This document shows positions 7,201 to 44,069 of a stretch of 64,000 nt of DNA, piece after piece. How positions within the stretch are numbered: position 1 is the first letter of the stretch; every line of letters starts with the position of its first letter. A program made the translations under genes and the position numbers. This stretch comes from Levilactobacillus namurensis (GTDB lineage Bacteria > Bacillota > Bacilli > Lactobacillales > Lactobacillaceae), in the NCBI RefSeq assembly GCF_032197885.1, contig NZ_CP134159.1:1736001-1800000 (forward strand), given 5' to 3'. The notes beneath the pieces are model-generated. The model was not told the DNA's origin, made no database searches, and worked only from the letters and a program-made list of their open reading frames with translations.

Positions 7201-10073
7201 TTAGATGTCCGAGAGTTTAGGTTTCTTAGTAAGGACTGCTGCTTCTGATTTCCTTTATCGGTTAGCTTAAGAATATCTGAATTCAGCTTCCGAACCAGTG
7301 CGACCCTATTCTTACCACCGGTACGCTCATCACGTTCAATCGCCGTATAGTCGGCTTTGACAGCCGCCAAGTGCTTTTGATTGTATGACTTTTGTGAATT
7401 AAGTGCCTTTTGTGCTGAACCAGCACTAGTTGCACCAATCTTTTCCAAAAAGCTTGCGGCCTTAGTTGATTTAGAAGTCGTCTTATCGACATAACCTGAC
7501 AGAGCTGAGTATGCTTTGTCGTACTTAGTGCTATTAGACGTAAGCAGTGAGGACTCGTCTGCCTTGATTTTCTTAGTCTGTTTTAAGGAAAAATCGGCTG
7601 CAGCATTGGCCCAGTCCTTATTTGCCGAACTGACTAGCTGAGTCGCTGTCTGGGTGGCGGTTCGTGCGTCCTTTGGCAAAGAGTCGAAGGGATTGTCCTT
7701 CTTAGATGCCTTACCAGAAGACTTGTGTGAGCCACCACTTATGCTCTTATTGTTAGAACTACCTACAGATAAGCCAGAAATATCATTACCAGCACTGGAA
7801 CCGTAAGGATTAGTTCGTAGCGTTTGGTGACTCACTGAGCCACTCTTTTTAGCGCTGGCATCGTAACTATGAATATTTTTGCGTTCTGTCTTATTTACTT
7901 GTTTAACAATGGGACTATCAGCAATTGTATTGCCTATGGCCCCACCAACAGCTGCACCAATTGTGGCAACAAGTGGATTTCCACCACTTAGAGCGGCTGC
8001 AACTCCACCGCCGACTGCGGAACCAGCGCCGTGCCATAACTCCTTGCCGCCTTGCTTGCTATCAACACCAGAATGAATTGCTTTAACAACATCGCTACCA
8101 ATACTTAAACCAATACCAGCATAAGCAAGTTTAGAGACTAAACTAGAAGCAGATAGTTTCCCAACTTTGCCGGTAGTTGCCGAAGAGACCGAGCTTGCGG
8201 CACTAGCAGCACTTTCGGATTCTGCCAAAGCCGTCGATGACGCTGCTAATGCATCCTGCGACACAGCTAAGCCTTTGACGAACTTGGCCGTCTTGATGGC
8301 CGCACTACCTAGCGTTGTGATAACACTAACAACTTTCGCTGCCGGTGCCAATGCAGCAACCGTTATGGCAGTCCACGTCAGCATAGTCTTTTGTGACTTA
8401 TCGAGTTTGCCGAACTTCTCCAGCAAGCCCCCCATACCGATTGCCAGTTTAGTAATCGACGGGAGTACCGTTTGTGCAAAAGTGATGGCTAATCCTGATG
8501 CTGCCTGTTTGAATTTGTTGATTTGGTTCTGAGCAGACTGCATGTTTTTGGCAGACAGCTTGCCGGTATAGTCATTCTTAGCTGAATCCTTGACCTTCTC
8601 GTTTAACTTGCCAAGCTGATCAGCATTTTCAGCTAAGATGGCTCCAGCTTGTTGCCCTGTTGCCCCAAACAGATTATGGAATACAGAGGCCTTTTCAGTC
8701 GCTCCTAGCTTGGCACTATGCTTTTGAATTAGGCTAAAAGTGTCAGCCATAGACTTCATATCACCATTTTTCTTGGTGAAATCTTTGGTTGAAAGTCCTA
8801 ATTTATCAAGCGCACCTTGTGCTGCTTTTGAAGGTGTCTGTAGACTGGTCAGTGTCTTACGTAACCCAGTCCCGGCTTTATCAGCTTCGAGACCATTATT
8901 AGATAAGATACCGATTGCACTGGCAGTTTCGGACAGACTTAATCCGGCTTGCTTAGCACTGACACCAGAATAACTAAGAGCAATCCCCATCGAATGGAAG
9001 TCCGTTGCCGTCAAATCAGCAGCGTATGCCATTTGATTAGTAACTGTCTTAGTGTTCTTGATCATGCCAGCAGTAGAGTTGGCCCGCATTCCGAAGGACT
9101 CTAAGGCTGCTGTTGAATCATGCACAACGTCTGAGAAACTGTCCCCAGAAGCTACAGATGCCTTTAGCATGGACTTCATAGAACCAAGAGACTGCTCAGA
9201 GGTGTAACCACGCTTGGTTAGCTCTTGATACCCCTCAGCAATTGACTTTTGGGACTTGCCATACTGGATAGAGTATTTAGCACCATCAGCCTGCATTTGC
9301 TTAGTGGCCTTCAGTGAAGTTCTGGCACTCTCACCACCAGTCGTCAGCAAGTTATTGGTGACCTTGTACTCATGCTGAAGCTCAATGGCCTTCTTAGCTC
9401 CATAGACAAACGCGGCGCCAACACCTAGGCTCAATGCCTTGGTCTTATCATAAACACGGTTAGCAGACTCAGACGCCGTCTTCATGGACTTCTGGGCTCG
9501 ATTGAATCCGTTGAGTTCGTTAGAAGTCTTAGCCATCTGTAGGCCTAAATCATTAACACGCTTTCGCTGTGCCTGATAAGCCTCCGTTGTTGCTCCATTA
9601 GCTGCTTTAATCCGCTGAAGCTGGGTTACCTCTTTACCGTACTGAGTCTGTAAGCTCGCGTATGTGCTGCGGAGTGACCGAATATGGTCACTATTGGCCG
9701 CATGTGCATGGCCCTGCGCCTTCAAGGTCTCGGTATACGAAGCATCGGCCTTCCGGCTAAGTTCTAACGACTTTCGCGAAGACTTAAGCTCATTTTCGTA
9801 TTCCTTTACCTGCTCTTTCAGCTTGGCCCTATCTTGCGCAGACTCTCGATCCTGTCGTCCAGAATTGCGTTGGTCCTCGGTATAAGACTTGGCAGCTGAC
9901 GTAGACTCTCGCTGGGCCACTGCTGAAGCTCGCTGACTGGCTGAGAAACTGGCACTTGCCGTCGTTGCCGACTTTGTTGCCGTTTCTAGTGTCTTGACGC
10001 TACCTTTCGCAGACCGTAGTCCACTATCATCAACTTTCCAATCAATGTCGATTGTCGTGTGCTTGATTGCCAT
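4293..10073 (-). CDS. Tail tape measure protein with M23 peptidase and lytic transglycosylase domains
   Basis: 1926 residues. Tape measure proteins set tail length and carry wall-cutting domains for DNA entry. Residues 1-200 are coiled coil (KSSRKSLELSRKAD region); about 230-560 is a TP901-type core with repeated G/A-rich helices; about 560-760 has hydrophobic helices. A lysostaphin-like M23 domain lies near 1530-1640 (HDGVDF and GPHVHIG, the zinc-ligand motifs). A soluble lytic transglycosylase-like domain lies near 1695-1830 (catalytic-type Glu in ETGNRS, then GPLQ and a Y-D-Q motif). Two different lytic domains in one tape measure suggest cleavage of both the peptide and glycan parts of the wall. 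Confidence 0.93.
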   Translation of the reverse strand: MAIKHTTIDIDWKVDDSGLRSAKGSVKTLETATKSATTASASFSASQRASAVAQRESTSAAKSYTEDQRNSGRQDRESAQDRAKLKEQVKEYENELKSSRKSLELSRKADASYTETLKAQGHAHAANSDHIRSLRSTYASLQTQYGKEVTQLQRIKAANGATTEAYQAQRKRVNDLGLQMAKTSNELNGFNRAQKSMKTASESANRVYDKTKALSLGVGAAFVYGAKKAIELQHEYKVTNNLLTTGGESARTSLKATKQMQADGAKYSIQYGKSQKSIAEGYQELTKRGYTSEQSLGSMKSMLKASVASGDSFSDVVHDSTAALESFGMRANSTAGMIKNTKTVTNQMAYAADLTATDFHSMGIALSYSGVSAKQAGLSLSETASAIGILSNNGLEADKAGTGLRKTLTSLQTPSKAAQGALDKLGLSTKDFTKKNGDMKSMADTFSLIQKHSAKLGATEKASVFHNLFGATGQQAGAILAENADQLGKLNEKVKDSAKNDYTGKLSAKNMQSAQNQINKFKQAASGLAITFAQTVLPSITKLAIGMGGLLEKFGKLDKSQKTMLTWTAITVAALAPAAKVVSVITTLGSAAIKTAKFVKGLAVSQDALAASSTALAESESAASAASSVSSATTGKVGKLSASSLVSKLAYAGIGLSIGSDVVKAIHSGVDSKQGGKELWHGAGSAVGGGVAAALSGGNPLVATIGAAVGGAIGNTIADSPIVKQVNKTERKNIHSYDASAKKSGSVSHQTLRTNPYGSSAGNDISGLSVGSSNNKSISGGSHKSSGKASKKDNPFDSLPKDARTATQTATQLVSSANKDWANAAADFSLKQTKKIKADESSLLTSNSTKYDKAYSALSGYVDKTTSKSTKAASFLEKIGATSAGSAQKALNSQKSYNQKHLAAVKADYTAIERDERTGGKNRVALVRKLNSDILKLTDKGNQKQQSLLRNLNSRTSKLTTKQYNSVVSQSAKSYSLTKSNAKKTYTAQVSSAKDRYDQTLKSAKQLYGVKSAEYKRIKGYAQDQYDKTTSAAYDQYKKTVHWAEKQRDAVVQAAADAAGGINGIMGVMSNNLETMLNQNSSATGSKHQKPVSDTQSIKNNYNPGNKLAKAAGKTYMGSGITVNQGLPGKAVGGSIRKTGMAMVGENGSEVLQRGKQFSVVGAKGAQLLQVRSGDRIYNHADVTKMVRGSFGQRLPNFAAGTTQLTSFATGSGAAMPGLSKKTSKDSISESKKMSKLVTKNYGDMSKKSASSLKQLNKKNASLWHDTRTDAESETTKLHKQAVKKFDDVKDDTVASLKSMHKQFNSVTTDLVSDFGSIFGKLKGQAHDGMAGAISSMNSGISSIDTTLAQFGGNKSVLKPIHYATGSKGPIASDQLAVLNDATSGPRQELVARGSQLLKPIGKDVITPLKKGDEVFNGSQVEKAKPYLPHFKKGTGASDDKLISLATKNHKNPDAAWKRDFDGKTANPKGSDLQRGLTTTAKGATDSVGPNWYKAGWNVINDAINGGSGAGGNWAHSPGLAKEDGFGTSRAQYYGAGAAHDGVDFSGPLGSAIRAIHGGTVSRIGGVGISDLGKVIIVKSDDGFQEIYQEFGGMGNIKVGVGETIKTGQRIATLGKLVGTGSGPHVHIGVTKGNPLKKNMLSTSGWYDVTKMHGKSSGAEKSKSKDTGVEKLFKREIGKSALAWISKHLQTETGGSFGGSMGGKSITKAMISKAEEVMKVPEGIRDQIASAILKTAMSETGNRSIMQQIHDSNSGGNEARGPLQYTPGTFAAYAVKGHKNIMNPYDQVLAFLNNSDYKNATGNTSIRGTAKYDWLHSGPQGHRRFAEGGRPKVGEWSIVGEKGPELFKPDSAGTIYPHEKSKQIANQAIPSNSRHSSKPKIDFHPTINVNITGDAGGNAKKQQVMKWVKEAIGESFEQLQDLLGGA

Positions 10074-23550: not shown

Positions 23551-23616
23551 CGAACCCTGCAGGATTCGAACCTGCGTCCCCACAAATGCGGTGCTCTGCC
23601 GCTGAGCTAAGGATTC
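23551..23616 (-). pseudogene. tRNA-Thr(UGU)-like element with shortened anticodon arm
   Basis: 66 bases. Acceptor arms GAATCCT and AGGGTTC pair (one G-U), D-stem GCTC/GAGC and a perfect T-arm (GCAGG, TTCGAAT, CCTGC) are intact. The anticodon arm plus variable loop is 16 bases instead of about 22. It is what remains if a UGU-anticodon arm lost six bases. It is therefore not a normal decoding tRNA. Confidence 0.65.
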
Positions 23617-23652
23617 AGAACCCGGCCTGTTTGGAGGTAGTGAACCGGGTGA

Positions 23653-23840
23653 CGTGCTTGGTAGGGAGTCGAACCCTACAGGTTGGGGGTATCTCTGCTT
23701 CATTACCAATTACCTATGAGCGCCGCGGCGCAACTCACAGAACCAACGGTCGCATTTCATTTATGGCTTTCACCATTATTGAAGAGCCACCGGCTACGCA
23801 TCATAGCGCGCTTTCTGTTTACCTATTCCATCACAAGCAC
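23653..23840 (-). other. 188-base element closed by tRNA-like ends
   Basis: At the 5' side GTGCTTG is followed by TGATGGAATAGGTAAACAG, which resembles a tRNA-Leu D-arm. At the 3' side a T-arm (TAGGG, TTCGACT, CCCTA) is followed by CAAGCAC, complementary to GTGCTTG. Between them are about 120 bases with further hairpins in place of an anticodon arm. It could be a tRNA-like domain of the larger RNA or a tRNA remnant split by an insertion. Confidence 0.45.
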
Positions 23841-23986
23841 ACGATGAGTTTTCGGTCATCATCAGGACTAACGCGAAGTTACAATGCCACCCGCGGGGCA
23901 ATGCATTAACTGAAAGAGTGTCGAATCAGTGGCTTACCCATCACGGTGCCTATCTCTCTGTTTAAGGCAAACTCAGTCAATAGCAA

Positions 23987-24058
23987 TGCCGTCGGTGGGA
24001 ATCGAACCCACATTTCCTAATGGCGGACCACCAGGCGGCTTAACCATTTGCCTACGGC
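23987..24058 (-). other. tRNA-like element with abnormal anticodon arm
   Basis: 72 bases, with acceptor arms GCCGTAG and CGACGGC (six of seven pairs), a D-arm-like GGC/GCC and a perfect T-arm (GTGGG, TTCGATT, CCCAC). Where the anticodon arm should be, an 8 bp stem (CCTGGTGG with CCATTAGG) closes a four-base loop TCCG instead of a seven-base loop. Length is normal for a tRNA but the decoding arm is not. Confidence 0.5.
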
Positions 24059-24135
24059 GACGTGAAAGGGGCTGTCCCTATCACTTATTTGATACTACCA
24101 ATATAAGGCCTAAATCCGGTTTAAAAGTACCATCT

Positions 24136-29797: not shown

Positions 29798-30646
29798 CTA
29801 ATCAATCAGTTCATCAGCATCGATGATGTCGCCCAGAACCTTAGTTGACCGACAGTAGTCGCACGTCTCACAGCGCTCCGGTTCTTCCTGGCCATCGATG
29901 ATGGACTTGAATCGGTGTTCCTGATCCTTGACCCGCCACATCGCATCATCTAGCTTGTCCTGCGGGATTGAGATGACCGCCTTGTCGGGCGGGTCTTGCT
30001 TGGTGACTGCAACAATGTAGGGCGTACATAGCACACCGTACTGTTGACGAACTAGCTCTTGGTAGACGGCCATTTGGAGCTGGTAGTCGTAGGCATAGAC
30101 GAATGGGACGTAGCGCCGTGTGCGGGTATCCCAGACCCGCTTGTGTAGGTCTTGCGTGGTCTTTAAGTCGAGGAAGATGCCTCGCTCAAGGTTCAAGCAG
30201 TCCAGCTTGCCCATCCAGTCGATACCGTCAATCGTCCCGGTGACAATTGACTCCTTAGCACCCTGGTAGAGTGCCCGGAATGTGGCATCGCTGTCTAGCG
30301 TCTTGATCATGTTCTCGGCCACCTTATATGGTGCCTTAAGTTGGCCCTTCGTCTTACCTCGGGTGGATAGCATCACGTCCTTGTGAGCTTCTACGAAGCG
30401 TTTATGGGACGCTGGGGACTCGAAATAGCTGTGAAGGTAGTTACCGACCAGCAAGGCCGTTGGGTCTCGCTGGGGCTTCCAGTCGCCTCTTAGTTCTGCC
30501 AGTGCTTCGGCCTCACACGCCGCGAACTTCTTGAACCATGTTGGCGACATGAAGTGCTTGTTTGCCTCGTCACTATAGTAGTTAGTCGAACTTAGAGTGA
30601 ACCCCGTCGTCTGGGAAGAGGTCCGTTTGTTGGGTGCCACTTGCAT
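29798..30646 (-). CDS. PD-(D/E)XK nuclease, RecE/AddB-like exonuclease partner of RecT
   Basis: Start ATG at 30646 is eight bases after AAGGAGG (an earlier ATG at 30679 is less likely); 282 residues. GNYLHSYFES, then GTIDGIDWMGKLDCLN and IFLDLKTTQDL give the D-x(n)-(D/E)xK nuclease pattern (D in KLDC and DLKT). A C-terminal C-x2-C-x-x-C pattern (CETCDYC) suggests an iron-sulphur or zinc site. The N-terminal part is longer than the core. It overlaps the RecT gene and probably degrades DNA ends for annealing. Confidence 0.8.
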   Translation of the reverse strand: MQVAPNKRTSSQTTGFTLSSTNYYSDEANKHFMSPTWFKKFAACEAEALAELRGDWKPQRDPTALLVGNYLHSYFESPASHKRFVEAHKDVMLSTRGKTKGQLKAPYKVAENMIKTLDSDATFRALYQGAKESIVTGTIDGIDWMGKLDCLNLERGIFLDLKTTQDLHKRVWDTRTRRYVPFVYAYDYQLQMAVYQELVRQQYGVLCTPYIVAVTKQDPPDKAVISIPQDKLDDAMWRVKDQEHRFKSIIDGQEEPERCETCDYCRSTKVLGDIIDADELID

Positions 30647-31580
30647 CAGCGTCTGCCTCCTTTCCCTTGGACTTATCAATTCCGTCTAGCAAACTGTCAA
30701 TGAATTGAGAATCGTTAAGTGATTTGCTTGAAGCAGAAGCTTCGGATCCCGATACGCTTTCGGACGCAATCTCGGACGCTTCTGATACGCTCTCGGACTG
30801 CTGTGGCACTTCTGGTTGTTCCTGGCTGTCCTTGGCGGGTTTGTCCTCAATCAAGTCTGCAACAGTCTTCTTGGGAGTCACATCCTTGGCTGACTGGTCA
30901 TCGTCGTACTCGGATTCGGTCGAATCGTTGATAGCTTTGACGAACAAATCGTTATCGTTAGAGCTGTTGATGTAGAGCTTAGCGGCCCGATTGATGATCG
31001 TCCGTTGAGCCATTTCCTGACCGAATTTCTGTTGCACGTTGTGGGTCCGCGATTGCGACCAGCTGGCGTCGATTTCCTTCTTGGTCATGACCGTCCAGAC
31101 CTTATGGCCATCCTCTTGGAGCACGTAGGCAAATGCCCCGATGATAGGATTATCGCGATTCTCAAACTTTGGCTGATACTTGGTGACGATCAGGTTCATC
31201 TCGTCATCAGCGCCAATCTCGAAGCCATCACCCTTAAAGACTGCCTGGGCTTTGATATCCTTGACCGACGACAATTGCTTGAGCACCGTCACTGACCCGA
31301 AGTAGGAACGCTGTAAGGTGCATTGCTTACCGTATGGGATGAAGTAGCATTGATTCTTTGCGGGGCTTAATCCCTGAATGGCCATGTTGAGCAGTGCCTT
31401 TGAGACTGACCGTGGGTCGCACTTGTCGAGCATTGACGGTCCCTTTGAATCGTCTGACAGGATCAGCCAGGCGGCGTTGAGTGCGTTGCCGACCGAGTAG
31501 CTAGGTGGGAGCTTGAGGCCCTCACTGTCCTGCATGTTCTGAATCTCTTTTTGAACTGATACTACAAGTTGATTAGCCAT
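30582..31580 (-). CDS. recT: RecT-family single-strand annealing protein
   Basis: 332 residues. The first 210 residues match RecT (SVGNALNAAWLILSDD, MAIQGLSPAKNQCYFIPYGK, ASWSQSRTHNVQQKF). The C-terminal 100 residues are low-complexity, rich in S, D, E and K. RecT anneals complementary strands made by the neighbouring nuclease, giving phage-coded recombination. Ribosome site and start at 31580 (ATGGCTAATC) are good; the gene overlaps the nuclease gene start. Confidence 0.9.
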   Translation of the reverse strand: MANQLVVSVQKEIQNMQDSEGLKLPPSYSVGNALNAAWLILSDDSKGPSMLDKCDPRSVSKALLNMAIQGLSPAKNQCYFIPYGKQCTLQRSYFGSVTVLKQLSSVKDIKAQAVFKGDGFEIGADDEMNLIVTKYQPKFENRDNPIIGAFAYVLQEDGHKVWTVMTKKEIDASWSQSRTHNVQQKFGQEMAQRTIINRAAKLYINSSNDNDLFVKAINDSTESEYDDDQSAKDVTPKKTVADLIEDKPAKDSQEQPEVPQQSESVSEASEIASESVSGSEASASSKSLNDSQFIDSLLDGIDKSKGKEADADASGTQQTDLFPDDGVHSKFD

Positions 31581-36732: not shown

Positions 36733-37368
36733 ATGTCCGAAAACTTTATGCATATTCCAAGAAAATGTCCGCACTGCAACTATTCAGGTATACAAACTCA
36801 ACTCAGCAAAACAGCGTCCTTCCGCTCTTATGAAAACGAAGAAGTAGAGGTAATAGTTTCAAGATGTGAAAATTGTCGACGAGCAACCGCCTACAATTTA
36901 TTCTTCACCAGCGGTGGTTCTTATTTGCGAACTGAATTAGTTAGCCCTATATTTTCACCAGAAAATATGACTTTTCCAAAATCCATTGAAAAGATGTCGC
37001 CGTCATTTATTAAGACGTATTCTCAAGCATCTACAGCAGAAGAAATAGGCCTATCTCAGATTGCTGGTATGGGATATCGAAAAGCGCTTGAATATTTAGT
37101 AACTGATTTTGTGCTAACCAATAAGCTAGTTACCAAAGATGAGTCTGTAAAACTCCCTCTATCTAAACTAATTAAAAAACTCCCCGAAGAAAGTATCAGG
37201 GAGTTAGCGCTTGCTAGTGCTTGGATTGGAAATGATGAAACTCACTACTATCGACAGAATCCTGAATTCCAGGTTGCTGATATAAAAGAGTGGATTCGGG
37301 CCATGATTAATTACATTGAGATGAAAGCATCAATCAAACGAGCTCACAATTTGGTAAACAAAAACTAG
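36733..37368 (+). CDS. DUF4145-like protein with zinc knuckle (HEPN clan)
   Basis: 211 residues, ATG at 36733 after AAGGAG. C12/C15 (CPHC) and C45/C48 (CENC) form a zinc ribbon. Residues about 110-190 (IAGMGYRKALEYLVTDFVL and WIGNDETHYY) match the DUF4145 p-helix bundle, a HEPN-clan domain often found in phage-defence proteins. It is the first gene of module 1. Role in defence is inference from the clan and place. Confidence 0.7.
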   Translation: MSENFMHIPRKCPHCNYSGIQTQLSKTASFRSYENEEVEVIVSRCENCRRATAYNLFFTSGGSYLRTELVSPIFSPENMTFPKSIEKMSPSFIKTYSQASTAEEIGLSQIAGMGYRKALEYLVTDFVLTNKLVTKDESVKLPLSKLIKKLPEESIRELALASAWIGNDETHYYRQNPEFQVADIKEWIRAMINYIEMKASIKRAHNLVNKN

Positions 37369-37379
37369 TAAAAGTAATC

Positions 37380-37550
37380 CTATTTATTGAGCTCATTGAT
37401 TCCTTTTTCACCGATCAAAATGCCATCAGTTGTCCAAAACTGTACAACTTTTCTCACTGGCGAATCAACAGTTCCTTTTCCTATAACATGTTCCACTCGA
37501 ATAACTTGCTGCAATTCTGCCCTTTCAACCACAGGTTCAAATTCATTCAT
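37380..37550 (-). CDS. 56-residue protein under a LexA-like box
   Basis: ATG at 37550 follows GGTGAGGTG. The product begins M-N-E-F-E-P-V-V-E-R and carries FWTTDGILIGEKGINELNK; it is small and soluble. A TATAAT (minus strand) lies just after a LexA-like box at 37588-37599. It faces away from the 37664 gene, with a shared regulatory gap of 113 bases. Its layout matches the gene at 39830. Function unknown. Confidence 0.65.
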   Translation of the reverse strand: MNEFEPVVERAELQQVIRVEHVIGKGTVDSPVRKVVQFWTTDGILIGEKGINELNK

Positions 37551-37587
37551 TTATATCACCTCACCAGTTTTAGTTGCAATAATTATA

Positions 37588-37599
37588 AAACATACGTTC
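37588..37599. promoter_or_regulatory. LexA/DinR-like box
   Basis: AAACATACGTTC: GAAC-N4-GTTC with one mismatch (G to A). It abuts the -10 TATAAT of the minus-strand gene at 37380, the usual place for a LexA operator. Supports SOS control of the small gene. Confidence 0.6.
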
Positions 37600-37625
37600 A
37601 CTTTTAGCTACTGTCCAAAACTGAC

Positions 37626-37655
37626 GACGTTAAAAGCTGTACATATTTTCAGGAG
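37626..37655 (+). repeat. Shared 30 bp leader of cargo genes, copy 1
   Basis: GACGTTAAAAGCTGTACATA followed by TTTTCAGGAGG, ending in the ribosome site of the 37664 gene. Nearly identical to 40085-40114 apart from one T. Probably a shared promoter/leader; the perfect match in two places implies common origin. Confidence 0.7.
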
Positions 37656-37663
37656 GGACCAAC

Positions 37664-38257
37664 ATGTCAGAAAATGACACTAAGTTTTGCTCATCGTGTG
37701 GTAAAAAAATCCCTATCAACTCAGAATTTTGTCCTCATTGTGGGGAAAAACAACCAGTAGTATCAGACAACCCTGCTCAAGAAAAGACAGTCGTGAAATC
37801 GTTTGAACCGTCGAGACCAATTTCCAAATCAAATTCCACCAAAAAATGGATTTCAGGCATCACTGCCGTCGTTATTCTCGTTGCACTTATCTTCGGTCTG
37901 AGTTGGGTTGTCAATCATTCAAAATCTCCAGAAAGCATAGCGTCTTCTATCCAGTCGAAGCTTAGGACTCAATCAGCTGACTACGGCAAAGCTAAGGCAA
38001 CATGGAATAGTGACAGTGAGGTAATAGAGATTTACCTTCCTAAAAACTCACATGTAGTAGAATCGTTAGAAGATGGCAGCCCTGCTTTATGGAATTCTCT
38101 TGTACGGGACTTAAAATCTAGTTCTACGGCAATTAACAAAAAGAATAATCCAAACTATTCTCATATAACCGTGGTCAGTCCACATGATAAAAATTATCTA
38201 TGGCTAGAAATTAATCATGGCAAAATAAAATACAATCAAGGAGATAATTTAAACTAA
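37664..38257 (+). CDS. Zinc-ribbon membrane protein with extracellular domain
   Basis: 197 residues. A zinc ribbon at 9-27 (CSSCGKKIP and FCPHCGEK) is followed by a linker, one membrane helix near 64-84 (ISGITAVVILVALIFGLSWV) and a 110-residue domain outside. ATG at 37664 after AGGAGGG. This zinc-ribbon plus membrane layout resembles cell-envelope sensor-like proteins. The following gene has a similar zinc ribbon. Cargo role unknown. Confidence 0.65.
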   Translation: MSENDTKFCSSCGKKIPINSEFCPHCGEKQPVVSDNPAQEKTVVKSFEPSRPISKSNSTKKWISGITAVVILVALIFGLSWVVNHSKSPESIASSIQSKLRTQSADYGKAKATWNSDSEVIEIYLPKNSHVVESLEDGSPALWNSLVRDLKSSSTAINKKNNPNYSHITVVSPHDKNYLWLEINHGKIKYNQGDNLN

Positions 38258-38269
38258 GGGGTGTTTATT

Positions 38270-38902
38270 TTGGAAGAAAAGACTAAATTTTGTATTCACT
38301 GTGGGAAAAAGATTCCCGCAACTGCTTCATTCTGCCAATTCTGTGGCTACACTCAAGGTTCTGATACCAATACTCAAGAAAATGTAGACCAAACCAGTAA
38401 TTATCAACAGACTGCATCCCCTAACTCGTTCACATCAAATATTTCTGATGTCCCTTATAATGAAAATAAAATCCCAGGTATCGTCAGTTCTACAAAACTT
38501 TATTTTAAAGATATGTTTCGCATAAATAAGAGAATGGGTCGTGCCGATTTTTGGTGGGCATCACTGGGTGTTGGCATTATTATGGTAATTATTGGCTTCA
38601 TTATAGGAATTATTCAAACCGTATTTCTTGGTGGTAGTGACAACTTTATGGAAACCGATATTGCCGGTGAGCTAACTCCTGCTGGGGTCACAAGCCTCAT
38701 TATGTTGATTATTCTGTTAGCTATCTATGTGATTCTTTTTATCGCTGCTCTGACAGGCGAGATTCGTAGACTCCATGATCTGGGATATAATGGCGCATTT
38801 TGGTTGATTAACCTAGTTCCAGCAATCGGATCCCTAATTATGCTAATTATTTTATGCCAGCCTTCAAAACAACAAAATAATCGCTACGTTCTACAAAAAT
38901 AA
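38270..38902 (+). CDS. Zinc-ribbon plus DUF805 membrane protein
   Basis: 210 residues from TTG at 38270 behind AAGGGG. Cys pairs (CIHC and CQFC) form a zinc ribbon in the first 25 residues. From about 75 the DUF805 family domain follows with four hydrophobic helices (VGIIMVIIGFIIGI, LIMLIILLAIYVILFIAA) and the signature EIRRLHDLGYNG. DUF805 proteins are inner-membrane proteins of unknown function. Its stop is one base before repeat R1. Confidence 0.75.
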   Translation: MEEKTKFCIHCGKKIPATASFCQFCGYTQGSDTNTQENVDQTSNYQQTASPNSFTSNISDVPYNENKIPGIVSSTKLYFKDMFRINKRMGRADFWWASLGVGIIMVIIGFIIGIIQTVFLGGSDNFMETDIAGELTPAGVTSLIMLIILLAIYVILFIAALTGEIRRLHDLGYNGAFWLINLVPAIGSLIMLIILCQPSKQQNNRYVLQK

Positions 38903-38903
38903 T

Positions 38904-38952
38904 CAGCTTCTGTCCGGTGACTCCCCTCGGTTCGATTCCGGGGAGAAGCATA
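38904..38952 (+). repeat. tRNA-minihelix-like repeat R1
   Basis: 49 bp. GCTTC and GAAGC can pair as an acceptor stem; between them lies a T-arm (CTCGG, TTCGATT, CCGGG) but no D or anticodon arm. Copies R2 (40825) and R3 (42588) are in the same orientation with a few substitutions. It begins two bases after the DUF805 stop. Confidence 0.85.
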
Positions 38953-39001
38953 GAATATGCATAAAATCTATTCAATTTTTTTAATTAGGGAGGCTAAATA
39001 C

Positions 39002-39826
39002 TTGGAAATTAAAATGACGGGATACTGTCCATACTGCAAAAAAGAGGACCATAAGCAAATTGCCAATGGTCTCCTTAACAACGATAATTATTCAATTTTA
39101 AAGTGTCCGAAGGGACATTCATTTATTGTCTACCTACAAAACAACAAATATGAGTGGCTGATTCGTAATTCTTTAAATGCTTTCAACGATCATTATTACC
39201 TTGAAGCATTTATGAGCCTATACCAATCAATTGAGCAATTTCGAATATCATTTATTGAAGCGAGCTATATTAAGCATAATCAGGCCAGGTTCAAACATAT
39301 TGAAAAGATGTTCGAAACTAATCCAGATTCAACTCAGATACTTGGTGCCTATAAAAGTGCCTACTTTTTAGAGACTGGTGAGCTAGTTGATTTAAACAAT
39401 TCTCGTCACAAACTATCTACCAAAAACATGTCTATTGTTCCACTTAGAAATAAAATTGTTCATCAAGGATATTATCCTAATGAACAAGAAGTTTTAAGGG
39501 CTGGCGATATAATCATCAAATACATTGCCAGTGTGGAACAAATCATTAAGTTTCATGTTGATCCTAACCCCATGAATCCACGACTAACTAAACTAATGGT
39601 ACCAGTTGACATTAATCTGATGGCACAACTTCCTGGATTAACTGAACATTTTGCTATTTCTAAAATCCAGAAACATAATCCTAGCGACTTAGACATCTTC
39701 CCATTTGAAGATGAAACATTGCATTTATCTGGATTCATTTCTGATGGACGCAAACTTCCTTCATTTCAGCGATTAGCAAATATTAGAAAAAAGAATAAAT
39801 TTGCTGAATTTGAAGTAGACGAATAG
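39002..39826 (+). CDS. HEPN-like protein with zinc knuckle
   Basis: 274 residues from TTG at 39002 after GGGAGG. A zinc knuckle (C9, C12, C35, H39) leads, followed by a helical domain. R149-N-K-I-V-H154 is the R-x4-H active-site motif of HEPN RNases, in VPLRNKIVHQGYY, an arrangement seen in Abi-type and APEA-type proteins. First gene of module 2, as the DUF4145-like protein is for module 1. RNase activity is inferred from the motif only. Confidence 0.65.
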   Translation: MEIKMTGYCPYCKKEDHKQIANGLLNNDNYSILKCPKGHSFIVYLQNNKYEWLIRNSLNAFNDHYYLEAFMSLYQSIEQFRISFIEASYIKHNQARFKHIEKMFETNPDSTQILGAYKSAYFLETGELVDLNNSRHKLSTKNMSIVPLRNKIVHQGYYPNEQEVLRAGDIIIKYIASVEQIIKFHVDPNPMNPRLTKLMVPVDINLMAQLPGLTEHFAISKIQKHNPSDLDIFPFEDETLHLSGFISDGRKLPSFQRLANIRKKNKFAEFEVDE

Positions 39827-39829
39827 CCT

Positions 39830-40000
39830 TCAACATCTAATAACAATTGACCCATCCCCTGGAATCTCAAAACTATTCTTATTAATCTCACTATTATTCC
39901 CCATATCATTATACTCATCACTTCTAACAAGAACCTGAGTATCCGGCTCAAACTGAGCTAGGTAATCAATCATTTCTTTTACTGTAAATGTATTACTCAT
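39830..40000 (-). CDS. 56-residue protein under a LexA-like box
   Basis: ATG at 40000 after GTGAGGC. The product begins M-S-N-T-F-T-V-K-E-M-I-D-Y-L and ends GDGSIVIRC, beta-like. A minus-strand TATAAT lies upstream, and a LexA-like box at 40020-40031 overlaps the likely transcription start. It has the same size and place as the 37380 gene, but the sequence is not similar. Function unknown. Confidence 0.65.
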   Translation of the reverse strand: MSNTFTVKEMIDYLAQFEPDTQVLVRSDEYNDMGNNSEINKNSFEIPGDGSIVIRC

Positions 40001-40019
40001 TTATATTGCCTCACTTTCA

Positions 40020-40031
40020 GAACGTACGTTT
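40020..40031. promoter_or_regulatory. LexA/DinR-like box
   Basis: GAACGTACGTTT: GAAC-N4-GTTY with the R-N-R-Y core GTAC. It lies 20 bases before the 39830-40000 start codon. Confidence 0.65.
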
Positions 40032-40084
40032 GCACACATTTATTATAACATCGCCTATTCATTCGGTCGTCGTCCACACCCGAT

Positions 40085-40114
40085 GACGTTAAAAGCTGTA
40101 CATATTTCAGGAGG
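40085..40114 (+). repeat. Shared 30 bp leader of cargo genes, copy 2
   Basis: GACGTTAAAAGCTGTACATA then TTTCAGGAGG before the gene at 40120. Same element as 37626-37655. It begins about 54 bases after the LexA-like box, in the divergent gap. Confidence 0.7.
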
Positions 40115-40119
40115 AAAAC

Positions 40120-40479
40120 ATGAATATCATCAAATGCATTTCGCTTGCAGTCGCTACACTATTACTAGCGACTGCTGTATATGTTCCCCAGACTGCATCA
40201 GCCAACACTTACGGAGAACACGGTCCTACTGACATCGGATACTGGATGCATAAGCACCGTGCCATTGTTACAAAGTCTATCCGAATCTATCAGTACACTA
40301 AGGGTACCATGTATACGCCATCTCATCGCGTTCGTAGTTTTAAGCTTCACCGTGGCCAAATTATCCACATAAAAAATGGAACCTATACGAATTGGAAAGT
40401 ATATGGGCGCAAGTACGTAAACAATAAGCATTATGAAACTGGTAGTAACCGTTTTAAAGGATGGTTCACGAGCTACTAG
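40120..40479 (+). CDS. Secreted small protein, paralogue of 40516
   Basis: 119 residues with a clear signal peptide (KCISLAVATLLLATAVYVPQ, then ASA). The mature part is basic and Y-rich; its central motif (I-x-V-T-K-S-I-R-I-Y-Q-Y-x-x-G) recurs in the next gene, followed by F-K-L-H-x-G and a final S-x-x-x-x-WFT-x-Y. These are small exported proteins of lactobacilli with no assigned role. Cargo of module 2. Confidence 0.65.
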   Translation: MNIIKCISLAVATLLLATAVYVPQTASANTYGEHGPTDIGYWMHKHRAIVTKSIRIYQYTKGTMYTPSHRVRSFKLHRGQIIHIKNGTYTNWKVYGRKYVNNKHYETGSNRFKGWFTSY

Positions 40480-40515
40480 TTTAGATTAATCAAATACATC
40501 TATCGGGAGGAAATT

Positions 40516-40824
40516 ATGAAAAAGATCTGGATCACCCTCGTTTCAGCAATTGCTTTAACCATGTTTATCAGCACCTCAGCAAATGCCAGTTACTATAAAC
40601 GCGCGTATGTCACTCGCAACATTACCGTATATAAATTCATCCGAGGTGATAGCTATGCAACTAGTCGCCTGGGTCATCATCTAAAATTACATTATGGGAA
40701 AACTATCCATGTTGCACCCTTCTATCATATGGGAAAGGACGGCTATTTCTTGAAAGTAAACGGCCACGGATCAAAACTATATTATGCACGAACGAACAGT
40801 TCTAAATGGTTTACACGATATTAA
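40516..40824 (+). CDS. Secreted small protein, paralogue of 40120
   Basis: 102 residues with a signal peptide (WITLVSAIALTMFISTSANA). It shares with the previous gene V-T-R-N-I-T-V-Y-K-F-I-R-G, L-K-L-H-Y-G and the end KWFTRY. Stop codon one base before R2. Both probably sit at the cell surface of the lysogen. Confidence 0.65.
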   Translation: MKKIWITLVSAIALTMFISTSANASYYKRAYVTRNITVYKFIRGDSYATSRLGHHLKLHYGKTIHVAPFYHMGKDGYFLKVNGHGSKLYYARTNSSKWFTRY

Positions 40825-40873
40825 CAGCTTCTGTCTGGTGACTCCCCTCGGTCCGATTCCGGGGTGAAGCATA
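40825..40873 (+). repeat. tRNA-minihelix-like repeat R2
   Basis: 49 bp copy with GCTTC/GAAGC and the T-arm (one substitution in the T-loop, GTCCGATTCC). It starts directly after the previous stop and lies 24 bases before the PemK-like start. Confidence 0.85.
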
Positions 40874-40896
40874 AATATGATAAGGAGGGATCATCC

Positions 40897-41817
40897 ATGC
40901 CTGAAAAACCTGAAAATTCAAAGATAACCAAGGGTGATATAATGCGCCAAGCCATAAAGAACTTTAAGACCGTTTATTATGGAAATCGTTGGAATAAAAA
41001 GTTTGAATTTATCCCAACTTGGCTTCTCCACGAATCAGAAATGTTTCTTGAAGAGAAAAAGAATTATACTCACTACAAAACGTTCAAACGTGGTGCAATT
41101 GTAAATGTGAATTTTGGTGTAAATATAGGTGACGAGTTATCGGGCCCACACTTTGCAATCATTTTAAATAAAAATGACAGTCCCTCACGTGGTGTATTGA
41201 CTGTGCTCCCCCTAACTTCTCATGACCATCCGAATGAAGTTAAGCTTACTGATACAATTCGCAATTTGAGCAGTGATATGTTTCGTGATACTGGATTAGG
41301 CGTTATGCTTGCACTCTATGCGACTGAGATAGGTGCAGATGAATTTTATTTAGCTGCTAATCCCAAATTTCCAAACGCAAAGCAAAGATTGAAAACAAGT
41401 TTGATGTCTGGAGAAGACAAAGAATTAGGAAAAAGTACATTTGAGATTATTACACATATTATTCCCAATAAAAATACAGCATTTCGTTTGTTGTCTAATA
41501 ACGGTAAACGAACAACTATTAATTTAGGACGGTTACTAAATCCTGATGGTTCTCATTCCGATATTGTAAAAGACTTAGTTAATACACTTATATGGACAAA
41601 AAGGAAATATGAGGATTATAACTTAGTCACTTACGCAAAAGTAGCAGACGTTACAACTATCAGCAAGCAACGTCTTAATAGGCTAAGCCCCTTTGATCCA
41701 ATTGGTAAAATTATGGTTTCCAACTCAACATTGACACAAATAGATCAGGCCTTGGCAAAACTTTTCATCAAACAAAAGTCATTGGTTGACAATAGTTCCA
41801 GAATGGATAATAATTAG
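40897..41817 (+). CDS. PemK/MazF-fold protein
   Basis: 306 residues from ATG 40897 after AAGGAGG. Residues about 60-110 (FKRGAIVNVNFGVNIGDELS and PHFAIILNKNDS) match the MazF/PemK fold, which in toxins is an mRNA interferase; the protein is two to three times longer than classical toxins, with an N-terminal helical part and a C-terminal extension. No antitoxin gene is adjacent. Phage PemK-like proteins of this length are common and their role is unclear. First gene of module 3. Confidence 0.75.
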   Translation: MPEKPENSKITKGDIMRQAIKNFKTVYYGNRWNKKFEFIPTWLLHESEMFLEEKKNYTHYKTFKRGAIVNVNFGVNIGDELSGPHFAIILNKNDSPSRGVLTVLPLTSHDHPNEVKLTDTIRNLSSDMFRDTGLGVMLALYATEIGADEFYLAANPKFPNAKQRLKTSLMSGEDKELGKSTFEIITHIIPNKNTAFRLLSNNGKRTTINLGRLLNPDGSHSDIVKDLVNTLIWTKRKYEDYNLVTYAKVADVTTISKQRLNRLSPFDPIGKIMVSNSTLTQIDQALAKLFIKQKSLVDNSSRMDNN

Positions 41818-41875
41818 GTTATTGAGGGTTACATTATGTACGCCCACCTAATTTATCCTAGTAATTCTGGGATCT

Positions 41876-41910
41876 AAACGGTTAGCCAATGGCTAGCCGT
41901 TTTTTTATTT
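41876..41910 (+). terminator. Terminator after the PemK-like gene
   Basis: Stem ACGGTTAGCCA with TGGCTAGCCGT (one bulge), followed by seven T and an A/T tail. 58 bases after the stop codon. Confidence 0.85.
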
Positions 41911-42009
41911 TATAAAGCTCTAGTTAAATTTTTATTTGACCGCGAATTTACAGTTCAAGTACAAGACTTGTGCATTATCATTAACTCGTTTTTATTATAT
42001 TATTTTTTC

Positions 42010-42083
42010 GAACCCTTAGCTCAACAGAATAGAGCAACAGTTTCCTAAACTGTAGGTTGCGAGTTCGATTCTCGCAGGGTTCA
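42010..42083 (+). tRNA. tRNA-Arg(CCU), phage-encoded
   Basis: 74 bases. GAACCCT pairs with AGGGTTC, D-stem GCTC/GAGC, anticodon stem ACAGT/ACTGT with loop TTCCTAA, T-arm GCGAG/CTCGC with TTCGATT. No CCA encoded. Reads AGG codons, which are rare in GC-richer host genes. Prophage cargo. Confidence 0.85.
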
Positions 42084-42085
42084 TT

Positions 42086-42159
42086 GGACCTTTAGCTCAG
42101 CTGGTTAGAGTAGACGGCTCATAACCGTCCGGTCGTTAGTTCGAGTCCAACAAAGTTCA
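42086..42159 (+). tRNA. tRNA with CAU anticodon (Met or Ile2), phage-encoded
   Basis: 74 bases. GACGG/CCGTC encloses CTCATAA. Acceptor GGACCTT/AAAGTTC has one mismatch and one G-T; the T-arm has one mismatch. Might decode AUA if lysidine-modified. Slightly degenerate, so activity uncertain. Confidence 0.7.
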
Positions 42160-42180
42160 TTTAGGTAACTATCTAAGGAG

Positions 42181-42315
42181 ATGACTTTAACGTTAAAGAA
42201 AGATGTTTTTCAATTGATAAATGATCTAATCGACCACTTACCAGTCATTGCTCTGATTGTATTAGTTATCATAATTGTGTCCTTTTACGTTTTTCACATA
42301 CGGTCAAAACACTAA
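42181..42315 (+). CDS. 44-residue membrane peptide candidate
   Basis: ATG at 42181 directly follows AAGGAG with no spacer, which weakens it. The product has one membrane helix (VIALIVLVIIIVSFYVF) and a basic end (HIRSKH), like small holin-like or type I toxin-like peptides. It lies after the two tRNAs. Confidence 0.4.
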   Translation: MTLTLKKDVFQLINDLIDHLPVIALIVLVIIIVSFYVFHIRSKH

Positions 42316-42339
42316 CTTTTGCATTATGGAGGTAATTAA

Positions 42340-42561
42340 ATGGTTTTTACTGATGTATTTAATGTTACGCATGATGACTGCAAGATCATTCAAACTCAGA
42401 ACGACTTCAAACGTGTGTTTATTATTGAAAACGAACAGGGAGTACGTTTTACCTGTTTGAAAGATGATGCACCTCGCTCTTCCAAAATTCACGATCATTG
42501 GAAACATGCCAAGCCTAGTGATTCTCCTGATGCACATCCTTTTCATGATAAATTTGTGTAA
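42340..42561 (+). CDS. 73-residue protein, unknown
   Basis: ATG at 42340 after TATGGAGG. Beta-rich start (DCKIIQTQNDFKRVFIIENE) and a His-rich end (HDHWKHAKPSDSPDAHPFHD). No family recognised. Last gene of module 3, followed by R3. Confidence 0.6.
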   Translation: MVFTDVFNVTHDDCKIIQTQNDFKRVFIIENEQGVRFTCLKDDAPRSSKIHDHWKHAKPSDSPDAHPFHDKFV

Positions 42562-42587
42562 CTGGATTGTTATGTGCCTAAGACGTG

Positions 42588-42634
42588 GCTTCTGTCTGGT
42601 GACTCCCCTCGGTTCGATTCCGGGGTGAAGCATA
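42588..42634 (+). repeat. tRNA-minihelix-like repeat R3
   Basis: 47 bp copy: GCTTC, T-arm (CTCGG, TTCGATT, CCGGG) and GAAGC. It lies 27 bases after a stop codon and 104 bases before the integrase. Confidence 0.85.
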
Positions 42635-42708
42635 GTCCCAAGGATGGTGACATTAAAAGATAAATATGTACTTGGGCCCGTTCAGGGCTTTTCTTTAATC
42701 GTCAAAAA

Positions 42709-42720
42709 GAACGCACGTTC
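42709..42720. promoter_or_regulatory. LexA/DinR box before the integrase
   Basis: GAACGCACGTTC, a perfect GAAC-N4-GTTC dyad that also fits the R-N-R-Y centre of Gram-positive LexA boxes. It lies 17 bases before the integrase start, next to its ribosome site, so LexA would block transcription or elongation. Confidence 0.7.
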
Positions 42721-42737
42721 GGAATGGAGGAATTATC

Positions 42738-44069
42738 ATGGCTCAAATATTCAAACGTGGCGACAGCTGGAAAGCCAAGGTCTACTTCAAGGACATTCAC
42801 GGCAAACGGACGTCACGCTCACAGGAAGGGTTCCGCACCAAGAAGGAAGCCGAAGCGGCCGCCCGGGTGATGGAAGACACTTACAAGAATGGATCCGATG
42901 TCGGCGACAAGAACATCTCTTTTAGCGACTACTTCCAGAAATGGTTCCACATCTTCCGGGAACCTGGCCTGTCAGATACCACTATCGCCCGGTACCAATA
43001 CACCATCAACGTGATTGACGAATACTTCGGTGACACACTTTTCCGTAAGATCAAAACAGCCGACTATCAGGAATTTCTCAACTGGTTTGGCAACGGGAAC
43101 GGAAAGGACGCGAAGCCCCACGCTAAGGCGACTGCCGACAAAATCAACACACACATCCGGGCCGCTGTCCGCAATGCAGTCAACGATTCGGTCATCAGCC
43201 GGGATTTCACGCAAAACACTCACGTCGTCTACGACAGCAGCCGGACCCGTGAGATCAAATGGCTCTCATATGACGATGCAGCCAAGCTGTACAACTACAC
43301 GCTGAACCACTTGGAAGGCATTGACGTTGTTCCCTATATGGTTCTGACTGCCCTGCTCACCGGCATGCGCCAGCAAGAAATCGCGGGGCTTACCTGGGAC
43401 GACATCGACAGCAAGGGGGGCTTCATCAAGATCACGAAGACCTGGAACTGGACGAAGCGTGACTTTGGCCCCACCAAGAACCCGGCATCCGTCCGGACCA
43501 TCTCGATTGACCGCAACCTGGTGAACATCTTGACCAAACTGCAGTATGAGCAAAAACGCTACTTGAAAGTGAACGACAAGACCAATCCACACAGCCTGGT
43601 TTTTCTGTCGCGCTACAACCGTGTCCCCTCTTCTAAGGCCCTCAACGACCGGTTACACGAACTGATGAAGGACGCCGACATCAACATATACCTGCGGTTC
43701 CACGGGCTCCGGCACACTCACGCGTCCATTCTGCTGTATCAGAAGATGTCGATTGCCTATATCAGCCACCGACTTGGTCACCAGGACATCGCCACAACAA
43801 CGAAGACTTATCTCCATATCATCAAGGAACTGGAGCAGGAAGAGACCGTCCGCACCCGTGAGATCTTCACTGACCTGGGGAAGAAGGCCGACTGGTCCGA
43901 CTTCAATCAAAGTCAAGGCCGAGTGATGGGTGCACCCAAATGGGTGATTCTCACTCCTGAATGGGTGCACCTTGGGTGCACACTTTTACAAAAGCATACG
44001 CGAATATATTTTTTTAGATACAAAAAAAGAGCAGAAATGCTATTATATCAACGTTCCTGCTCTTTTTAA
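42738..44069 (+). CDS. int: Tyrosine site-specific integrase
   Basis: 443 residues. N-terminal arm-binding and core-binding domains (about 1-170), catalytic domain with R211, H322-x-x-R325, H348 and nucleophile Y358. Integrates and, with an excisionase, excises the prophage; no excisionase gene is evident nearby. Residues 390-443 are an extension that reads through TGGGTGCAC repeats and a terminator and ends in its T-run, so the true ancestral stop may have been lost. It ends 23 bases before the tRNA-Leu gene. Confidence 0.9.
   Translation: MAQIFKRGDSWKAKVYFKDIHGKRTSRSQEGFRTKKEAEAAARVMEDTYKNGSDVGDKNISFSDYFQKWFHIFREPGLSDTTIARYQYTINVIDEYFGDTLFRKIKTADYQEFLNWFGNGNGKDAKPHAKATADKINTHIRAAVRNAVNDSVISRDFTQNTHVVYDSSRTREIKWLSYDDAAKLYNYTLNHLEGIDVVPYMVLTALLTGMRQQEIAGLTWDDIDSKGGFIKITKTWNWTKRDFGPTKNPASVRTISIDRNLVNILTKLQYEQKRYLKVNDKTNPHSLVFLSRYNRVPSSKALNDRLHELMKDADINIYLRFHGLRHTHASILLYQKMSIAYISHRLGHQDIATTTKTYLHIIKELEQEETVRTREIFTDLGKKADWSDFNQSQGRVMGAPKWVILTPEWVHLGCTLLQKHTRIYFFRYKKRAEMLLYQRSCSF
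43927..43982. repeat. TGGGTGCAC repeats next to the attachment site
   Basis: A 12 bp palindrome TGGGTGCACCCA (43927-43938) and two further TGGGTGCAC copies (43962 and 43973) lie in the 3' coding extension of the integrase. Spacing suggests arm-type integrase binding sites. Confidence 0.55.
44022..44067. terminator. Bidirectional terminator between integrase and tRNA cluster
   Basis: AGAGCAG and CTGCTCT pair (22-base loop) with A-run on one side and T-run on the other. It ends the integrase on the plus strand and, on the minus strand, the rRNA-tRNA transcript. Confidence 0.75.

What the first reader, a model, noticed from the sequence alone, without database searches (positions are those of the whole stretch)
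36733..42634. Repeat-punctuated cargo array: tRNA-minihelix repeats close each of three prophage modules
Three copies (38904-38952, 40825-40873, 42588-42634) of a 47-49 bp element stand at the end of gene groups, all in the same orientation, two of them within two bases of a stop codon. Each can fold as GCTTC/GAAGC acceptor stem plus a T-arm with TTCGATT loop, with no D or anticodon arm. This is the minimal RNase P substrate shape, so the repeats could act as mRNA processing points or 3' ends. They could instead be remnants of insertion at a tRNA-like target that captured cargo one piece at a time. I know of no described system of this form.
Basis: partly seen in the sequence, partly recalled or inferred. 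Interest (0 to 1): 0.85.

Follow-up and report, generated by a model that had tools for sequence, protein, structure and literature searches.

The report
Anticodon-less tRNA mimics punctuating phage operons
Three near-identical repeats in a Levilactobacillus prophage are miniature tRNA look-alikes standing at the ends of gene groups, and the same RNA shape turns up between genes of many unrelated phages, probably marking places where long messages are cut.

Summary
The three repeats are real, all on the + strand, and far beyond chance. There is no anticodon arm and no CCA. Compensatory changes support the fold. In Levilactobacillus prophages the element closes gene cassettes (moron, toxin-like and candidate defence genes), and neighbours are swapped at it: 9 of 21 upstream flanks occur with two or more downstream flanks.

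The larger finding lies outside the window. The same architecture, with conserved loops but different, co-varying stems, follows stop codons in other Lactobacillaceae prophages, in T7-like cyanophages between psbA and the capsid gene, and in metagenomic viruses, one with eight copies on one strand. I found no Rfam 15 match and no description in the papers searched.

Best reading: an RNA punctuation signal that recruits tRNA-processing enzymes (RNase Z, perhaps RNase P), comparable to plant-mitochondrial t-elements. In Levilactobacillus the near-identical copies have also become recombination boundaries. The structured RNA class is well supported; cleavage is inferred, not shown.

The parts
38905..38951 (+). 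mini-tRNA-like element, copy 1, 2 nt after the stop codon of the DUF805 gene
   Evidence: competing fold
40826..40872 (+). mini-tRNA-like element, copy 2, 1 nt after a stop codon
   Evidence: fold
42587..42633 (+). mini-tRNA-like element, copy 3, 25 nt after a stop codon and 104 nt upstream of the integrase start
   Evidence: fold
37664..38257 (+). zinc-ribbon protein gene (module closed by copy 1)
38261..38902 (+). zinc-ribbon/DUF805 membrane protein gene, directly before copy 1
38957..39826 (+). 289-aa gene of unknown function (listed ORF; true start uncertain), first gene after copy 1
40120..40479 (+). 119-aa ORF, secreted-type by eye (no family match)
40516..40824 (+). 102-aa ORF, secreted-type by eye (no family match), directly before copy 2
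40897..41817 (+). PemK/MazF-like gene after copy 2 (listed ORF begins at 40864; ATG at 40897 chosen by eye)
   Evidence: no PADLOC match
42010..42083 (+). phage tRNA-Arg(CCT)
42085..42160 (+). phage tRNA-Met(CAT)
42340..42561 (+). 73-aa gene, last before copy 3
42738..44069 (+). tyrosine integrase gene, downstream of the array, ending beside tRNA-Leu
30582..31580 (-). RecT-family recombinase gene, candidate agent of homologous exchange at the repeats (role inferred)

Best explanation
The repeat belongs to an apparently undescribed class of phage RNA elements: anticodon-less tRNA mimics of about 47 nt that punctuate polycistronic mRNAs. Shown by comparison: the fold and its co-variation, the two constant loops (YGGU and TTCGATT, which would allow a tRNA-like elbow), the sense orientation, and the frequent position just after stop codons. 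Inferred: the transcript folds into a tRNA-like elbow with a stacked helix of about 12 bp, is bound by tRNA-processing enzymes and is cut, most likely by RNase Z just after the discriminator base and possibly also by RNase P on the 5' side; the upstream gene would gain a structured 3' end and the downstream gene a new 5' end. In Levilactobacillus prophages the near-identical copies act secondarily as short homology islands at which recombination swaps cassettes between the repressor operon and the integrase.
For: Co-variation: 14 Levilactobacillus-type rows, score 0.111 against 0.065 in shuffles, 0 of 500 as high; 56 model-found rows, 11 of 15 pairs with changes on both sides (fitted alignment); 10 diverse phages, score 0.730 against 0.170, slid controls at most 0.233; other Lactobacillaceae, 140 double-change cells against 36.6 (fitted alignment). 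Position: within -9..40 nt of a same-strand stop in 20 of 21, 16 of 32 and 16 of 21 elements, random 8.5, 6.4 and 10.9%, opposite-strand stops 0, 5 and 1. No CCA in 74 of 74. Eight copies in one metagenomic virus, -3 to 36 nt from stops. Cyanophages: stop codon inside the acceptor strand with compensating partner strand, 39 of 101 pattern places; S-TIP37 places it between psbA and the capsid gene. RNase P and RNase Z both read the elbow and RNase Z takes CCA-less precursors (PMC4810234 passages). Flank swapping.
Against: No RNA data: no transcript end at any element was seen. By energy alone only 11 of 25 distinct 47-nt rows (hybrid and decayed rows included) have all three helices above P 0.5, and copy 1 prefers another fold. 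Half of the 32 distinct A5 elements are not close behind a same-strand stop, and in L287 two of four elements do not directly follow a same-strand gene. The U after the discriminator (19/21, 31/32, 18/21) is partly built into the model: 9 of its 10 seeds end in T. If RNase P cut 5' of the cyanophage elements it would remove the stop codon.
Confidence: 0.55

Rival explanations
1. A structured RNA that works without being cut: a 3'-end stabiliser, a decoy for a tRNA-binding protein, or a signal acting on translation between cistrons.
For: All comparative evidence for the RNA fold holds equally; position near stop codons; a second hairpin lies just downstream in several phages, e.g. L108, L109, L116.
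Against: The tRNA-like helix length and lack of CCA are what a processing substrate would show; nothing found here points to a specific binding partner.
Confidence: 0.22
2. A DNA recombination site, comparable to an integron attC, recognised by an integrase that moves cassettes as gene plus element.
For: Cassettes end with the element, all in one direction; 9 of 21 upstream flanks have two or more downstream partners; 93 of 555 homology ends lie at elements, 9.4 expected if uniform; a tyrosine integrase gene lies downstream.
Against: No single crossover position is seen inside the element; integrases next to it differ, 60% identity in JNU_P2; in cyanophages the element sits at one fixed place beside psbA and the capsid gene; copies in L287 or L108 differ in their stems.
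Confidence: 0.12
3. Tandem homology islands only: tRNA-derived repeats with no RNA role, kept because recombination copies them around.
For: In Levilactobacillus copies are nearly identical and flanks reassort at them; decayed copies exist in 7 of 56 rows; a hybrid with a tRNA-Met 3' half exists; elements often adjoin phage tRNAs.
Against: Compensatory changes across unrelated phages and closeness to stop codons call for selection on a fold.
Confidence: 0.06

Closest known systems
Plant mitochondrial t-elements (and mitochondrial tRNA punctuation)
   Same: tRNA-like structures between genes of polycistronic transcripts that mark cleavage sites (PMC8003010 passages)
   Different: Organelle genomes, proven processing; here DNA phages, a minimal fold with constant loops and no anticodon arm, cleavage unproven
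tRNA-like structures at the 3' ends of plant RNA viruses
   Same: Viral tRNA mimicry at RNA 3' regions, elbow mimicry and RNase P cleavage reported (PMC4810234, PMC4810235, PMC12710915 passages)
   Different: RNA genomes, one copy at the genome end, CCA end and pseudoknot in the cases described; here DNA phages, intercistronic, repeated, no CCA
Intercistronic RNase III sites of phage T7 (recalled, no call)
   Same: Structured cut sites between genes of a phage operon
   Different: Long hairpins cut by RNase III rather than a tRNA shape
Integron attC sites (features recalled, no call)
   Same: Structured repeat closing each cassette in an oriented array near a tyrosine recombinase gene
   Different: No single crossover position found; same element class in phages with no cassette array
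tmRNA tRNA-like domain (features recalled, no call)
   Same: Acceptor, D-like and T parts without an anticodon arm
   Different: No tag-coding part seen; not called as tmRNA by ARAGORN in the window or matched by Rfam

Membership tests
tRNA (Rfam RF00005) | covariance-model match at the element | tested here: not met
   No RF00005 match at the three copies, even at E up to 10 or at gathering
tRNA (Rfam RF00005) | anticodon arm | tested here: not met
   Loop-to-loop distance leaves no room in the window copies; S-RIP1 alone has an extra arm there
Any Rfam 15 family | gathering-score match | tested here: not met
   Window 1-44300, 10 loci, 5 loci: no match at an element; not every locus was scanned
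t-element-like processing signal | tRNA-like fold kept by compensatory change | tested here: met
t-element-like processing signal | location between genes of one transcript direction | tested here: met
   exceptions in L287
t-element-like processing signal | cleavage by RNase Z or RNase P, RNA ends at the element | not testable with these tools
   needs RNA-end mapping or in vitro cleavage
Integron attC | one fixed crossover position in the repeat | tested here: inconclusive
   positions 1, 7, 23 and 37 lean to the upstream flank, 11, 20, 28 and 40 follow neither; small, non-independent sample
Integron attC | core sites recognised by IntI and a cognate integron integrase | not tested
   attC models and IntI were not searched
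Integrase attachment-site fragment (tRNA 3' end) | repeat equals the 3' part of the target tRNA | tested here: not met
   Integrase ends beside tRNA-Leu, whose 3' end sequence matches only itself in the window, not the element
Viral 3' tRNA-like structure | aminoacylation or CCA end | tested here: not met
   CCA in 0 of 74 elements; aminoacylation not testable

The most novel reading that the evidence does not exclude
DNA phages share a widespread, unnamed class of anticodon-less tRNA mimics that punctuate their operons: each copy recruits host tRNA-maturation enzymes to cut the message right after a gene, a phage counterpart of mitochondrial tRNA punctuation. In Lactobacillaceae prophages the same signals frame exchangeable defence and moron cassettes, so RNA punctuation and cassette shuffling share one element.
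Probability: 0.5. Interest if true: 0.92.

Novelty: new variant of a known kind. Interest (0 to 1): 0.82.

Why it matters
It would be a new RNA class in dsDNA phages, recognisable by two constant loops while every stem changes, which may be why no family model holds it. It would mean that phages use tRNA-maturation enzymes to process mRNA, extend viral tRNA mimicry from plant RNA viruses to DNA phages, and give a signpost for finding exchangeable defence cassettes in prophages. It is directly testable in laboratory strains.

Tried and rejected
Integrase-driven capture at a tRNA target: no single crossover position, whole elements at junctions, integrases differ. Known Rfam families: no match at an element in what was scanned. 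Halovirus HF2 intergenic repeats, followed up because L108 looked haloviral to me: they are promoters, not this element (PMC8707807 passages); L108's 572-aa protein had no phage relative, so its host stays unknown. Blast for relatives of L116 and L140 DNA: no match. Wider genomes: in an order-level sample 4 of 118 genomes matched at E<=1e-7, all of the window's family. The Levilactobacillus core pattern itself is confined to one genus (12 of 397 family genomes).

Rows dropped before counts: one search left out L097 and L105; one search left out L105 and L011's element cut by the locus start; one search took one element per Levilactobacillus upstream cluster and, for the A5 set, distinct rows without L276 and L280; one search took 47 loci that I had picked by eye. 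In one search one downstream cluster (D1) holds a doubtful member (L100). Loci include overlapping or near-identical records, so junctions and homology ends are not all independent events. Random positions were drawn within 3 kb of each element.
Full report
Observation. The repeats are present as stated, on the + strand; copies 2 and 3 are 91% and 87% identical to copy 1 over 54 nt. A 28-nt core with up to 3 mismatches hits 3 times in the window and 0 times in 100 shuffles, and 3 times in the whole genome. Copies 1 and 2 start 2 and 1 nt after stop codons, copy 3 starts 25 nt after one. They lie between a repressor-like gene and a phage metallo-protease-type gene on one side and a tyrosine integrase that ends next to tRNA-Leu on the other.

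Shape. The structure is a 6-bp acceptor stem, a 3-bp hairpin GUC-YGGU-GAC, and a 6-bp T stem with loop TTCGATT. Acceptor and T stems together make 12 bp, as in tRNA (recalled). There is no anticodon arm, and T stands where a tRNA would have C74. On 14 Levilactobacillus-type rows the co-variation score was 0.111 against 0.065 in shuffles, 0 of 500 as high. On 56 model-found rows (32 distinct; decayed copies, a hybrid and L105 included) 11 of 15 pairs showed a change on both sides, and the score was 0.176 against 0.087 (that alignment is fitted to the model). Folding energy alone is less kind: of 25 distinct 47-nt rows, the hybrid and a decayed row included, 11 have all three helices above P 0.5, and copy 1 has a better competing fold.

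Cassettes in Levilactobacillus. Matches occur in phages LBR48 and JNU_P2/P4, in IMG/VR (11 stretches, 18), in 12 genome-contig stretches all titled Levilactobacillus, and in 12 of 397 Lactobacillaceae genomes, all in the window's genus. With the covariance model, 16 of 35 genus genomes have a match above 45 bits. In each of the 36 loci that could be oriented, its elements point the same way. Among 51 elements there are 21 upstream and 22 downstream flank clusters and 39 distinct junctions; 9 of 21 upstream and 6 of 22 downstream clusters meet more than one partner (one downstream cluster has a doubtful member). Elements hold 93 of 555 interior homology ends on the query side, 9.4 expected if uniform (pairs are not independent). 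The other 462 ends lie elsewhere, so elements are a hot spot, not the only one. Alleles inside the element do not point to one crossover position. I read this as homologous exchange between near-identical copies; the phage encodes a RecT-family protein. Genes in these arrays include matches to PDC-M24A and B, PD-Lambda-1, PD-Lambda-5 component B, PDC-S02, a C5 methylase with an AAA ATPase, and a HipA-like kinase, besides a PemK/MazF-like gene with no PADLOC match and DUF805 proteins. Several cassette proteins had no match at all.

A wider class. A pattern that keeps only the two loops returned 41 IMG/VR stretches, 29 of them new (L107-L135). By a script that allows small offsets, 17 of the 29 have an acceptor pairing of 5 bp or more; two of these, L125 and L130, share a sequence that ARAGORN calls tRNA-Ser in L125. 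Examples with wholly different stems are GCCACC..GGTGGC (L114), GCGGTG..CACCGC (L116) and GTTAAG..CTTAAC (L129). In the isolate S-TIP37 the element overlaps the end of a small gene between psbA and the capsid gene. In S-RIP1 the weak match (16.9 bits) has an extra arm where an anticodon arm would stand. Ten diverse members give a co-variation score of 0.730 against 0.170 in shuffles and at most 0.233 in slid controls. Metagenomic virus L108 carries eight matches on one strand, -3 to 36 nt from stop codons, with hairpin stems that include GTC/GAC, GCT/AGC and GTT/AAC around TGGT; the weakest of the eight score 20-22 bits. L116 carries three.

Other Lactobacillaceae. Model R2 finds matches at E<=1e-6 in 29 of 161 family genomes and 13 of 40 genera. 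Of the 24 loci fetched outside the window's genus, one overlaps a predicted tRNA; the other matches were listed but not all inspected. The 34 distinct rows of the fitted alignment give 140 cells with changes on both sides against 36.6 in shuffles. L287 shows the same plan in another genus: a peptidase_M78 gene, then four elements with different stems among other genes, then an integrase. Two of its four elements do not directly follow a same-strand gene: one comes 273 nt after it, one after two reverse-strand ORFs. In an order-level sample 4 of 118 genomes matched at E<=1e-7, all of the same family.

Placement and ends. Elements start within -9..40 nt of a same-strand stop in 20 of 21 (Levilactobacillus), 16 of 32 (A5 set) and 16 of 21 (metagenomic set, L105 included) cases; random positions nearby gave 8.5, 6.4 and 10.9%; opposite-strand stops 0, 5 and 1. 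The last matched base is T in 19/21, 31/32 and 18/21, and CCA occurs in 0 of 74. The T count is partly circular, because 9 of 10 model seeds end in T.

Mechanism. Elbow loops, a stack of about 12 bp, sense orientation, closeness to stop codons, repetition along one strand and lack of CCA favour tRNA-processing enzymes. A cut by RNase Z would leave the stop codon on the upstream message even in the cyanophages, where a cut by RNase P at the acceptor 5' end would remove it, so I rate RNase Z first. That both enzymes read the elbow, and that RNase Z takes CCA-less precursors, comes from PMC4810234 (passages); that t-elements mark cleavage sites between mitochondrial genes comes from PMC8003010 (passages). 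That B. subtilis RNase Z favours downstream U is recalled. Cleavage itself is not shown.

Known or not. No Rfam 15 family matched an element in the stretches scanned. Ten paper searches showed me no description of such elements in phages. I saw their listings, and passages of PMC8707807, PMC9004378, PMC10763512, PMC4810234, PMC8003010, PMC4810235 and PMC12710915. The library holds open-licence papers only, so an account elsewhere is possible.

Noticed in passing
window 37613-37648 and 40072-40107; similar DNA after elements in L006, L013, L097, L098: A shared leader (GTCCAMAMCYGAYGACGTTAAAAGCTG...) precedes several cassette genes; read as codons it can start ATG-ACG-TTA-AAA-GCT (MTLKA). The integrase leader after copy 3 looks related (GTGACATTAAAAG).
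   Followed up: partly
window 23551-24061 (- strand); L105 about 9280-9900: Near the presumed terminase end of the phage lie two Rfam tRNA matches plus further odd tRNA-like stretches; in the L. brevis relative L105 one mini-tRNA-like element (9415-9462) sits in a similar cluster.
   Followed up: partly
L005 8300-8346, L010 8194-8240, L011 543-589, L034 9489-9535, L053 3252-3298, L098 8570-8616, L106 9934-9980: The same decayed element copy (broken pairs, altered T-loop) is shared by these seven loci; some are related records.
   Followed up: partly
L034 9016-9062 and L106 9461-9507: Natural hybrid: the 5' part of the element runs into the 3' part of a tRNA-Met at the shared T-loop sequence, probably a short-repeat deletion.
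   Followed up: no
L240 3006-3059 and L129 4034-4087: Glutamine-II riboswitch matches lie about 60-130 nt upstream of the element in a T7-like cyanophage (S-TIP37) and in a metagenomic virus.
   Followed up: no
L114 3983-4047: A Pistol ribozyme match lies upstream of the gene that the element follows: a possible gene framed by two RNA processing signals.
   Followed up: no
L241 3175-3243 (S-RIP1): Element with an extra stem-loop inserted between the D-like hairpin and the T-arm, where an anticodon arm would be.
   Followed up: partly
L290 14796-14841: An element follows a zinc-type alcohol dehydrogenase gene, not an obvious phage gene.
   Followed up: no
window 42660-42735, also about 37585 and 40020: Before the integrase there is a terminator-like hairpin with T run and a GAACGCACGTTC box; similar boxes precede two small reverse ORFs. 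They resemble SOS (LexA) boxes as I recall them.
   Followed up: no
L226: One metagenomic viral contig has two elements with identical stems (GGCTA..TAGCC) but different flanks.
   Followed up: no
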